A DNA stretch of 64,000 nt from Moraxella canis. Its GTDB lineage: Bacteria; Pseudomonadota; Gammaproteobacteria; Pseudomonadales; Moraxellaceae. The notes below the pieces were generated by a model. That model did not search any database, had not been told where the DNA came from, and was given only the letters and a program-made list of their open reading frames with translations. Below are positions 13,493-40,605 of this stretch, one piece after another (positions within the stretch are counted from its first letter, which is position 1; every line of letters starts with the position of its first letter). The stretch spans positions 124,001 through 188,000 of the forward strand of contig NZ_MUXT01000009.1 in the NCBI RefSeq assembly GCF_002014965.1, read 5' to 3'. A program made the position numbers and the translations under genes.

Positions 13493-13568
13493 GGCGTGAT
13501 AGCTCAGTTGGTAGAGCAACGGATTGAAAATCCGTGTGTCGGCAGTTCGATCCTGCCTCTCGCCACCA
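13493..13568 (+). tRNA. tRNA-Phe (anticodon GAA)
   Basis: This is a 76-nt cloverleaf with CCA encoded. The D arm is AGCTCAGTTGGTAGAGC, the anticodon loop TGAAAAT carries GAA at 13526-13528, and the T arm is GGCAG-TTCGATC-CTGCC. In the 7-bp acceptor stem (GGCGTGA with TCTCGCC) the fifth pair is a U-U mismatch and the other six are canonical. The gene stands alone with its own promoter and a strong terminator 5 bp downstream. Confidence 0.96.
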
Positions 13569-26859: not shown

Positions 26860-27218
26860 GGGGATGTTCTGGCTTCGACGCTGGTAGCGAAACCTAATGA
26901 TGCATGTCAAGAGCGTGTGACTCTTGTAAATCAACATACATTTAAAATAGTCGCAAACGACGAAACTTACGCACTAGCAGCCTAAGGGCTGTTTGGGACG
27001 GCACAGATTGCCTTTGGTCTGGTTGCTCTCCCCGATGCGAACGCACAGAGGCTAGCCAAGATCAGCGTTGCGATGATATTGGCGAATCTTTTAGCAAATC
27101 GTCCAATCCATCCTGACTGTCGGTTCGGTGCGGATTAAAGCCATAGACAGAATCTAAGCATGTAGACTCATAGATGTAGTGCTGGCGGACGCGGGTTCAA
27201 CTCCCGCCATCTCCACCA
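26860..27218 (+). ncRNA. ssrA: Transfer-messenger RNA (tmRNA)
   Basis: tmRNA rescues stalled ribosomes and tags the incomplete protein for proteolysis. The 5' end GGGGATGTTCTGGCTTCGACG and the 3' end GGGTTCAACTCCCGCC...ACCA form the tRNA-like domain; GGGGATG pairs with CATCTCC with one G-U. The tag frame starts at GCA 26953 after the conserved AATAGTC and encodes ANDETYALAA, ending at TAA 26983-26985. The E. coli tag ends in ENYALAA, so only the fifth residue of the shared core differs (Thr for Asn). The total of 359 nt matches gammaproteobacterial tmRNAs. SmpB is not encoded in this window. Confidence 0.96.
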
Positions 27219-37782: not shown

Positions 37783-37847
37783 ATGATTAAAATAAAAACG
37801 ACTTGCTTTGGCGATCTTGCTAAAGCCAATCTATGATAGAGAGATTT

Positions 37848-39044
37848 ATGAGCGACAGTGCCCATCACAGTGACATTATTATCGTGGGAGCAGGTCCAGC
37901 AGGTCTTGCGTTTTGTCGATTTTTTAAGGGCAGCGATCTGCGTTTGACCCTGATCGAAAAAGCGCCATTGACAGCCTTACAAAACCCTGCTTACGATGGT
38001 CGCGAGATTGCTCTGACCAACACCTCCAAAGAAATTCTACAAAATTTGGGTGCTTGGCAAAGATTTAACCCTGATGAGATTTACCCCCTAAAAGATGCCA
38101 AGGTGTATAGTGGTCATCTAAACTATGCCCTGCATTTTCAAGTACCCAAATTGATGCACTTACAGCGTTCGCTGGATCGGCTTGGAAATTTAATTTCTAA
38201 TCATAATATCAAAAAAGCACTGTACGATGAAGTGGCAACGATGGATAATGTCACGCTCATTACCGATGCGACCGTAACGGATGTCAATACAGATGATAAT
38301 AAAGCCTGTGTGACCTTGATGGATGGCAGACAGCTACAGGCAGATCTTGTGATCGCTGCAGACAGCCGCCTATCTGGTGTGCGGCGTATGCTCGGCATTG
38401 GGGCGCAGATGCATGACTTTGGGCGTACCGTCATTGTCTTTCGTGTCACCCATCCGCTGTCAAACCATGCCACTGCCCAAGAGTGCTTTTTATATGGTCG
38501 TACTTTGGCGCTGCTGCCACTGAATGATACGATGACCAACTGTGTCATCACCCTCGATAATACGCAAGCAGATGAGCTATTAAAACTTAGCCCTGAGCAG
38601 CTGGCTCACGAAGCCCAAAGAATGTTTGGTGATCGATTTGGTGCATTTACCATCGCTGGTAGTGTGCACCATTACCCACTGATGGGCGTGCATGCACATA
38701 GGTTCAATGCCAATCGGGCAGCGCTTATAGGTGACGCAGCGGTAGGCATGCATCCTGTGACTGCGCACGGCTATAACCTGGGTCTGCTCAGCGCCAACAC
38801 TTTGGCGCCGCTGATTTTGCAGGCGCACCGCCGTGGCTTGGATATTGGCTCAAATCAGCTGCTATCTACCTATAATTGTCGCCATCAGGCGCACACCAGA
38901 CCCTTATATCATGGCACCAATGCGATGGTAACCTTGTTTACAACCGATACGCCGCCCATGCGTGCGGTGCGTGATTTGGCTTTGCGCGTCAGTAATAACC
39001 TTCCCCCAGTCAAGCACTGGATCGCCAAACAACTCGTGGGTTAA
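37848..39044 (+). CDS. ubiM: UbiH/UbiF/UbiM-family FAD-dependent ubiquinone hydroxylase
   Basis: This is a flavin monooxygenase that probably hydroxylates the ubiquinone ring. FAD-binding motifs are intact: IIIVGAGPAGLAFCRF at the N-terminus, the DG motif around RLSGVRRM and GDAAVGMHPVTAHGYNLGL near residues 285-305. The stretch YDGREIALTNTSKEIL and PLKDAKVYSG resemble UbiM, the unusual 5-demethoxyubiquinol hydroxylase, more than UbiH or UbiF, but I cannot be sure without an alignment. The ATG at 37848 is chosen with GAGAG upstream (398 aa); ATG 37833 is also possible. Confidence 0.82.
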   Translation: MSDSAHHSDIIIVGAGPAGLAFCRFFKGSDLRLTLIEKAPLTALQNPAYDGREIALTNTSKEILQNLGAWQRFNPDEIYPLKDAKVYSGHLNYALHFQVPKLMHLQRSLDRLGNLISNHNIKKALYDEVATMDNVTLITDATVTDVNTDDNKACVTLMDGRQLQADLVIAADSRLSGVRRMLGIGAQMHDFGRTVIVFRVTHPLSNHATAQECFLYGRTLALLPLNDTMTNCVITLDNTQADELLKLSPEQLAHEAQRMFGDRFGAFTIAGSVHHYPLMGVHAHRFNANRAALIGDAAVGMHPVTAHGYNLGLLSANTLAPLILQAHRRGLDIGSNQLLSTYNCRHQAHTRPLYHGTNAMVTLFTTDTPPMRAVRDLALRVSNNLPPVKHWIAKQLVG

Positions 39045-39133
39045 ACTGCCCAGTTCTGACACTGCCATAGCTACTAAAAAGGTCAAAATGATTAGATTTT
39101 GACCTTTTTGCTTCAATATCGACCTAGATATGC

Positions 39134-39165
39134 TGTGGATAAGCCTGTGGATAGTTTGTGTATAA
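39134..39165 (-). promoter_or_regulatory. Three helically phased DnaA boxes
   Basis: TTATCCACA, CTATCCACA and TTATACACA (minus-strand reading) lie at 39134-39142, 39146-39154 and 39157-39165. Starts are 12 and 11 bp apart, compatible with cooperative DnaA binding on one helix face. Confidence 0.65.
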
Positions 39166-39572
39166 AGTATCTTTATAATAATATCCAAATCTATATTATG
39201 ACAATCGCGTGAAACAAGGCGTTCTATATTATCGTTATTTTATCATTTTAACTAATAAAAAATTTAATATAACTATATCATTTAAACTGATGAATAGGCT
39301 TATCCTTGGGTTTATAAGGCTTAGCAGGGTTTTCCCCATAAACTGTGGATAACTTAAGATACTGAGCTGATTTATGATAAGTAAAGCAAGTCGTATCAAG
39401 CGATGACATAGAATTGAACAAAATTTAATCAAATTGTAATTTTAAAAATAATATGATAAAAATCAATAATTTATAAAATTTTTGTTTGACAGTTTGATGA
39501 AATATTGACAAAATTTTCAAAATATTATCCGAAATTTTTTGATAAAAAGGTTTCACGATATCAATAAAATTT

Positions 39573-39593
39573 TGTGGAAAAAATTGTGGATAA
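39573..39593 (-). promoter_or_regulatory. Two adjacent DnaA boxes next to xerC
   Basis: TTTTCCACA (39573-39581) and TTATCCACA (39585-39593), minus-strand reading, are 12 bp apart, with the latter 32 bp from the xerC stop codon. Confidence 0.6.
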
Positions 39594-39624
39594 CTTTGAA
39601 AATTAGACTGTTAAGCCATGATGA

Positions 39625-40605
39625 TTACTTTGAGCGATGCGCACGGGGATGGGCATGATCATAGACTCTCGTGAGTGCGCCAAAGTCAACATGCGTGTAG
39701 ATTTGAGTGGTGCTGATATTTTGGTGACCAAGCATCTCTTGAATGGCGCGTAGATCGCCGCTGGATGACAGCACATGAGAAGCGAAGCAGTGACGCAGCA
39801 TGTGCGGGTACATATTCAGCTCAATACCTGCCATGGCGGCGCACGCTTTTAGGCGAAGCTGTATCGCGCGCGTACTCAGGCGAGTGCCGTGGCGTTCACT
39901 GATAAACAGCGCATCCGAATTTTGTTCTTGCCATAAGTCGCGATGGGGCAGGTAGTCTTGAAGGGCGATGAGGGCCTTTTTGCCGACAGGGACTTGGCGA
40001 GTTTTGTTGCCTTTACCTAATACGCGTACGATGCCGGTGTCAAAATTAACATCACCCACATTTAAGCCTGCAAGCTCAGACAGACGAAGTCCGCTACTAT
40101 ACATCAGCTCAAACATTGCCTTATCGCGTACCCACAAGCGCGCCTTGGCTGCATCTTCGGGCATTTTTTGGTCAAGTAGCTGCTGTATGAGCATCTCGTC
40201 AGCGACAGTGGGCAGTTTTCGAGGTGCGGATTTGATTTTATAGCCGGTGGCGGGGTTGGATGCAAGAGCGCCTTGCTTGATCAAAAATTGATAAAAAATC
40301 CGAATGGCAGATAGGCTAAGCTTGGCACTGATTGGTTTTATTTGTGCTTCTTCTAAACGGGTGCCAAAAAATCGGATCAGGTCTTGGCGGCGGCAAGCCA
40401 ATGGATCACCGTTAAGATATTTGTCAGACGCCACAAAATTTAAAAACTGTATCAAGGCTGTTTGATAAGTTTTGATGGTGCGCTCAGAGTAATTTTGTAG
40501 TCTTAGCTCATCACACCAAGATGATAAATAACCCCAAGCAGCTGAGTTTGGGTCTGCTTGGGGACTAGGATGGGTGGGCGCGACGAGATGCGACAGCCTG
40601 CTCAT
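39625..40605 (-). CDS. xerC: Site-specific tyrosine recombinase XerC
   Basis: XerC acts with XerD at dif to resolve chromosome dimers at division. The 326 residues hold a SAM-like N-terminal DNA-binding domain and the catalytic domain with all active-site residues: Arg174 (SGLRLSE), Lys198 (GKGNKTRQVP), His268 and Arg271 (HMLRH), His294 (LGHQNIS) and the nucleophile Tyr303 (TQIYTH). It overlaps the dapF stop by 1 bp (TGATG), so it is translated with dapF. The DUF484 gene that usually lies between dapF and xerC in pseudomonads is absent. The N-terminus is ~15 residues longer than in E. coli. Confidence 0.95.
   Translation of the reverse strand: MSRLSHLVAPTHPSPQADPNSAAWGYLSSWCDELRLQNYSERTIKTYQTALIQFLNFVASDKYLNGDPLACRRQDLIRFFGTRLEEAQIKPISAKLSLSAIRIFYQFLIKQGALASNPATGYKIKSAPRKLPTVADEMLIQQLLDQKMPEDAAKARLWVRDKAMFELMYSSGLRLSELAGLNVGDVNFDTGIVRVLGKGNKTRQVPVGKKALIALQDYLPHRDLWQEQNSDALFISERHGTRLSTRAIQLRLKACAAMAGIELNMYPHMLRHCFASHVLSSSGDLRAIQEMLGHQNISTTQIYTHVDFGALTRVYDHAHPRAHRSK

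What the first reader, a model, noticed from the sequence alone, without database searches (positions are those of the whole stretch)
39134..39593. Cluster of six DnaA boxes in a 580-bp A/T-rich gap beside xerC: candidate oriC or DnaA-titration locus
Seen in sequence: four TGTGGATAA-type boxes (three perfect copies, one with a single change), plus TGTGTATAA and TGTGGAAAA, all in one orientation within 460 bp. The left trio is phased at 11-12 bp and the right pair sits directly before xerC; long A/T blocks separate the groups. Known: TTATCCACA is the high-affinity DnaA site, and origins combine such clusters with an A/T-rich unwinding element. A single 9-mer is expected far less than once in this length. 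Inference: this is the chromosomal origin or a secondary DnaA-binding site. No dnaA, rpmH or gidA is nearby and flanking genes do not point away from it, so the origin reading is not secure; a datA- or DARS-like site is the alternative.
Basis: partly seen in the sequence, partly recalled or inferred. Interest (0 to 1): 0.78.

Follow-up and report, generated by a model that had tools for sequence, protein, structure and literature searches.

The report
Split DnaA-recycling site beside xerC
A stretch of non-coding DNA in a Moraxella chromosome carries binding sites for the replication starter DnaA around a DNA-bending site, laid out like the sites that recharge DnaA in E. coli but with one part moved; it is probably a replication-timing switch and not the replication origin.

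The parts
39330..39338 (+). box I: TTTTCCCCA, degenerate DnaA box opposed to box II across 5 bp
   Evidence: the same TTTTCCCCA-N5-TGTGGATAA is at xerC in M. cuniculi; one mismatch from TTWTNCACA, as are box I of E. coli DARS1 and DARS2
39344..39352 (-). box II: exact TTATCCACA, head-to-head with box I
39461..39473 (+). IHF site AATCAATAATTTA, exact match to WATCAANNNNTTR, offset 131 from box I
   Evidence: at the same offset +-1 in M. cuniculi xerC and M. catarrhalis recA copies; still an exact match in G001 (one change, in the unspecified part)
39573..39581 (-). far tandem pair, first box TTTTCCACA
39585..39593 (-). far tandem pair, second box TTATCCACA (exact), 3 bp from the first
   Evidence: no opposed box at 5 bp before this pair (5 mismatches at 39559)
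39134..39165 (-). left trio TTATCCACA (39134), CTATCCACA (39146), TTATACACA (39157), 11-12 bp apart; an extra beyond the I-II-IHF-pair unit; role unknown
   Evidence: M. cuniculi xerC has boxes at -217, -206, -185, -174 against -196, -184, -173 here; not seen in the M. catarrhalis recA copy
39076..39109 (.). perfect 14-bp inverted repeat (loop GATTAG), possible terminator behind ubiM
   Evidence: read, checked; the terminator scan did not list it
37833..39044 (+). ubiM (left neighbour, converging)
   Evidence: NCBIfam NF006593 over cut-off
39625..40605 (-). xerC (right neighbour, converging)
   Evidence: best NCBIfam match TIGR02224, 300 bits, just under the cut-off of 335

Best explanation
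[not shown]
For: I-N5-II geometry equal to E. coli DARS1 and DARS2 read from NC_000913. Three-box pattern (up to 2 mismatches) in 47 of 57 genomes of the order, 18 of 22 Moraxella, reversed-pattern control 0 in all 57. IHF site at offset 131 in the window, 131 in the M. catarrhalis recA copy, 130 in M. cuniculi xerC. Core-anchored searches: 106 IHF matches in 101 of 199 Moraxellaceae genomes, all at 118-122 although 92-122 was allowed; 18 in 11 of 199, all at 129-132 although 123-152 was allowed; controls 0. E. coli DARS2 has one-mismatch IHF sites at 93 and 109, 3 bp apart as reported for footprinted IBS1-IBS2. Head-to-head I-II essential, box III stimulatory in E. coli (PMC10380432, passages). 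Nine elements of five one-contig relatives lie at 0.37-0.62 of the replichore; E. coli DARS2 0.41, DARS1 0.66, datA 0.20. Boxes and IHF site changed at 1 of 76 positions against G001, the rest at 30 substitutions and 8 gap columns in 504 (Fisher p 0.047).
Against: Box III is absent beside box II (7 mismatches there) and box I is absent beside the far pair (5 mismatches), so the defining three-box core is incomplete; box I has one mismatch. All boxes but box I point one way and flank an IHF site in datA's relative orientation. The window's own genome is not held, so its place on the replichore is unknown. 98 of 199 Moraxellaceae and 176 of 239 gammaproteobacterial genomes do not match the strict core-plus-IHF patterns. 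In G008 the xerC-side core has no IHF site. The M. catarrhalis recA copy lies in a divergent gap. Fis sites, needed in E. coli DARS2, were not looked for. No activity was measured.
Confidence: 0.6

Rival explanations
1. A datA-like element: ATP-DnaA binds the same-direction boxes on both sides of the IHF bend, a head-to-tail oligomer forms and bound ATP is hydrolysed, damping re-initiation.
For: Box II, the far pair and the trio share one direction, and the IHF site between II and the pair has the same orientation relative to the boxes as in E. coli datA. PMC5742627 (passages): essential datA boxes share one direction, with an IBS between boxes 2 and 3.
Against: The opposed box at 5 bp is kept in M. 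cuniculi (same degenerate letters) and in the M. catarrhalis recA copy (TTTTCCACA, no mismatch to TTWTNCACA). Arms are 99 and 108 bp against 56 and 84 bp in datA. Related elements carry full DARS cores. Elements in relatives lie mid-replichore, datA at 0.20.
Confidence: 0.17
2. A passive DnaA-titration cluster, or a decaying DARS copy kept by chance, with no catalytic role.
For: Box III is missing and box I is degenerate; the genome type has a second, better element upstream of recA; the xerC-side copy is absent in 14 of 20 genomes examined.
Against: Layout and distances kept in M. cuniculi although element identity is only 0.57; one change in 76 site positions against G001; both M. catarrhalis copies have the same split form, as does M. 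cuniculi xerC.
Confidence: 0.15
3. The chromosomal origin or a second origin.
For: Box cluster with A/T-rich DNA.
Against: Box arrays upstream of dnaA in relatives, including G001 (5 boxes). Sampled skew of G006 and G008 flips at dnaA. No skew minimum at the array in the window.
Confidence: 0.02
4. DnaA boxes acting as transcription-control sites for a neighbouring gene.
For: DnaA can regulate promoters (recalled; also stated in PMC5742627, passages); in other loci the element lies upstream of recA.
Against: Here both neighbours end at the gap; the promoter scan found 8 sites against a shuffled mean of 4.2, sd 2.4, in A/T-rich DNA; the spacing is the same beside unrelated genes.
Confidence: 0.04

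Closest known systems
E. coli DARS2 (rppH-mutH region)
   Same: Box I opposed to box II across 5 bp; IHF site on the far side of box II, same strand as here, at 109 bp against 131 bp from box I (about two helical turns apart); further boxes beyond.
   Different: DARS2 has box III 3 bp from II; here it is missing and a tandem pair lies beyond the IHF site. DARS2 has a second IHF site at 93 and needs Fis sites (PMC4245941, passages); Fis sites were not looked for here.
E. coli DARS1 (bioD-uvrB region)
   Same: Box I - 5 bp - box II; box I has one mismatch in both.
   Different: DARS1 has box III; its best IHF-like match near this offset has two mismatches.
E. coli datA
   Same: Same-direction boxes on both sides of an IHF site of the same relative orientation.
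   Different: Arms 56 and 84 bp against 99 and 108 bp; no TTWTNCACA-like opposed box at 5 bp from box 2 or box 3 in the scan; lies at 0.20 of the replichore.
DARS-like elements of other Moraxellaceae (this work)
   Same: Core box pair and phased IHF site.
   Different: Nineteen of 27 tabulated elements carry I-II-III at the near end and 5 at the far end; only 3 (this one among them) are split.

Membership tests
DARS | Three boxes I, II, III: I opposed to II and III, gaps of 5 and 3 bp | tested here: not met
   I-N5-II present with one mismatch in box I; no box III beside II (7 mismatches). Hence filed as a variant, not a member.
DARS | Head-to-head boxes I-II | tested here: met
   39330 (+) and 39344 (-), 5 bp apart
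DARS (DARS2 type) | IHF site at a set distance beyond box II | tested here: met
   exact consensus at offset 131; relatives 129-132 or 118-122; E. coli DARS2 109
DARS (DARS2 type) | Fis sites required for activity | not tested
   a Fis-like protein is found in G001 at 87 bits, under the cut-off of 99; sites not searched
DARS | Mid-replichore place | tested here: inconclusive
   own assembly not held; nine elements in five one-contig relatives at 0.37-0.62, assuming ter opposite dnaA
DARS | Stimulates release of ADP from DnaA | not testable with these tools
   needs purified proteins
datA | Same-direction boxes flanking an IHF site | tested here: met
datA | Spacing of boxes 2 and 3 to the IHF site (56 and 84 bp) | tested here: not met
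   99 and 108 bp
[quoted passage not shown]
   needs purified proteins
oriC | Skew minimum at the site | tested here: not met
   window; in G006 and G008 the flip is at dnaA
oriC | Box cluster beside an A/T-rich stretch | tested here: met
   not specific
oriC | Replication starts there | not testable with these tools
   needs marker-frequency data

The most novel reading that the evidence does not exclude
DARS with helically phased IHF control is an old device of Gammaproteobacteria, and M. catarrhalis has evolved a split version in which the catalytic box pair and the box III substitute lie on opposite arms of an IHF hairpin, so that IHF binding itself assembles the reactivation site: a conditional switch that may need no Fis.
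Probability: 0.35. Interest if true: 0.72.

Novelty: new variant of a known kind. Interest (0 to 1): 0.6.

Why it matters
Papers whose passages were read here describe DARS-like sites in gammaproteobacteria related to E. coli (PMC4245941; PMC5010248). A DARS-type core followed by a phased IHF site in 101 of 199 Moraxellaceae genomes and 63 of 239 gammaproteobacterial genomes would make DNA-catalysed recharging of DnaA much more general. Offsets of 109, about 120 and about 131 bp differ by about a helical turn, which is natural evidence that the direction of the IHF bend matters. The split element poses a clean, testable question: can the box III function act from the other arm of an IHF hairpin?

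Tried and rejected
oriC: rejected on box arrays upstream of dnaA and on the skew of two relatives. Promoter-site reading: weak, because both neighbours end at the gap. One shared origin of all xerC-side elements: not supported; on a tree of 27 elements the window joins M. cuniculi xerC (support 92/84), while four bovoculi-like xerC copies fall with six recA copies (99/99), and the two kinds face opposite ways relative to xerC. Elements are short and spacers near saturation, so this is a lead only. A tandem box pair on G001 contig C23 was set aside: no opposed box at 5 bp (6 mismatches), and it lies at a gene end. Half-site-like GTTTCACG at 39550 suggested a parS reading while I read the sequence; not pursued. 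Literature: the searches listed no paper whose title or abstract start concerns DARS in Moraxellaceae; the library holds open-licence papers only. The original DARS paper was not looked up and not read, and the 2019 head-to-head paper is not held.

Limits of the counts: in the table the IHF site is the best match between offsets 90 and 174 with ties going to the one nearest 131; searches have no such bias. Three of the 27 tabulated elements (window, G001 recA, G005 xerC) entered by their boxes, the others by the three-box pattern. The looser box-II-to-IHF pattern matched 104 of 199 genomes with 3 control matches. One of the 18 matches (G008, 2220233) lies about 7 kb from dnaA and may not be an element. 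Genomes of one genus are not independent, so the binomial values are only indicative.

Full report

PLACE. The gap 39045-39624 is 580 bp and 27% GC. ubiM runs into it from the left and xerC from the right. A perfect 14-bp inverted repeat at 39076-39109 may end ubiM transcription; the scan did not list it. In E. coli, transcription through datA, DARS1 or DARS2 harms their function (PMC5010248, passages), so a convergent gap suits such a site (inference). The M. catarrhalis recA copy, however, lies in a divergent gap.

NOT THE ORIGIN. TIGR00362 finds dnaA in 19 of 20 relatives. Of the 19 dnaA loci, 14 hold 489-900 bases of upstream flank (cut at 900) and carry 4 to 10 boxes with at most one mismatch there; L129 holds 225 bases with 2 boxes; L112, L114, L115 and L118 start within 72 bases of dnaA and cannot tell. 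Twenty samples of 20 kb from each of G008 and G006 show positive skew from dnaA to about 1.0-1.1 Mb and negative skew beyond, with one negative sample (232 kb) inside the positive half of G008. The xerC-side elements lie at 0.46 and 0.41 of the way from ori to ter there. The window shows no skew minimum at the array.

THE MISSED PARTS. Scanning for TTWTNCACA with one mismatch adds TTTTCCCCA at 39330 (+), five bases from the 39344 box. An exact IHF consensus lies at 39461-39473.

THE MATCH TO DARS. E. coli sites were read from NC_000913. DARS1: TTATCCACT-N5-TGTGGATAA-N3-TGTGTATTA. DARS2: TTATTCACC-N5-TGTGGATAG-N3-TGTGAAGAA. Box I is opposed to II and III, with the same spacing in both (PMC5742627, passages); the head-to-head pair is essential and box III stimulates (PMC10380432, passages). 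A pattern with this geometry, up to two mismatches, matches 47 of 57 genomes of the order, and its reversed control none. Of 22 Moraxella genomes 18 have at least one match and 11 have two; at least one of these (G016, C55) lies in the dnaA-linked array. G001, G012, G015 and G020 have none.

THE IHF SITE IS PHASED. Of the 27 non-E. coli elements tabulated (26 Moraxella, one of another genus), 19 have an exact IHF consensus at offset 129-132, 4 a one-mismatch site at 131-132, 2 an exact site at 120-121, 1 a one-mismatch site at 120, and 1 (G008 xerC) none. The fair test is core-anchored. Allowing 92-122, 106 matches in 101 of 199 Moraxellaceae genomes fall at 118 (1), 119 (5), 120 (74), 121 (25), 122 (1). 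Allowing 123-152, 18 matches in 11 of 199, all Moraxella, fall at 129 (5), 130 (4), 131 (8), 132 (1). Controls were 0 in both. Across Gammaproteobacteria, allowing 94-124, 75 matches in 63 of 239 genomes fall 71 times at 117-122, twice at 109 and once each at 106 and 123; controls 0. E. coli DARS2 has one-mismatch IHF sites at 93 and 109, 3 bp apart; the paper reports its footprinted IBS1 and IBS2 as 3 bp apart (PMC4245941, passages), so they are probably the same (inference). Offsets 109, about 120 and about 131 thus differ by about one helical turn. In E. coli, moving the IHF sites away from the core left partial activity at 5 bp and moderate activity at 10 bp; moving them towards the core left partial activity at both.

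THE SPLIT FORM. Three arrangements occur among the 27. Near-core (19): I-II-III first; 14 of these also have a box of box-II direction at 211-247. Far-core (5: G005 recA, G007 a and b, G009 a and b): I-II, then the IHF site (one mismatch in G005), then I-II-III. Split (3: the window, M. catarrhalis recA, M. cuniculi xerC): I-II, IHF, tandem pair, with no box III near and no box I far. In the window the two empty places have 7 and 5 mismatches. Pairs of elements are mostly 0.45-0.6 identical, yet distances hold. Against G001 the boxes and IHF site changed at 1 of 76 positions, the rest of the gap at 30 substitutions and 8 gap columns in 504 (Fisher p 0.047). A looser pattern finds exactly two box-II-plus-IHF places in G001: this one and the recA one.

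NEIGHBOURS AND COPIES. The second M. catarrhalis element lies upstream of recA-recX (RecX below its cut-offs). Of the 20 other loci fetched, 10 border recA and 6 groEL, and trmB is among the neighbours in 7, of both kinds (one or two members of each family checked by profile). G007 and G009 have one element on each side of recA-recX. In M. cuniculi the xerC-side element kept its place although the gene on its other side is lysA. In G006, G010 and G017 the xerC-side element is inverted relative to xerC and groups with recA copies of that clade: the place was probably filled twice, or the element was replaced.

PROTEINS. An IHF-alpha-like protein is found in 15 of 15 Moraxella genomes, best scores 111-119 bits, none over the cut-off of 120. 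A Fis-like match is found in 12 of 15, 4 over the cut-off (99 bits); none in G008, G014 and G021, a short or weak one in G006 and G017, yet these carry elements. That hints that Fis is not always needed (inference).

VERDICT. A DARS-like element in split form is the best reading (0.6). It fails the strict definition because box III is not next to II, so it is called a variant, not a member. datA-like action (0.17), passive titration or decay (0.15) and transcription control (0.04) stay open, because only biochemistry can tell what the bound DnaA does.

Noticed in passing
[not shown]
   Followed up: yes
L233 and L235 (G007, G009): Two far-core elements bracket recA-recX about 2.8 kb apart; the two copies of G009 are 0.89 identical, which looks like a recent duplication.
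   Followed up: partly
G020 (2.0 Mb, one contig, listed 100% complete): No match for XerC, DnaA or any box pattern although listed as the same genus. Masking or a truly odd genome; not resolved.
   Followed up: no
e.g. G095:C13:1752-1877, G167:C2:603228-603353, G147:C3:121787-121912: In several genomes of one genus (g9) a DnaA box TGTGTATAA or TGTGCATAA sits between two GTTTCACATGAAAC-like palindromes (parS-like, recalled motif).
   Followed up: no
L226 4966-5076 (G001 contig C23): Two exact tandem boxes (3 bp apart) and a third exact box 90 bp on, at the junction of two same-strand genes; no opposed box at 5 bp.
   Followed up: partly
window 26860-27218 (+) and 13493-13565 (+): tmRNA gene and a tRNA gene, the only Rfam matches of the window at gathering scores.
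   Followed up: no
window 31314 and 55418 (-): Two further exact TTATCCACA sites in the window, single.
   Followed up: no
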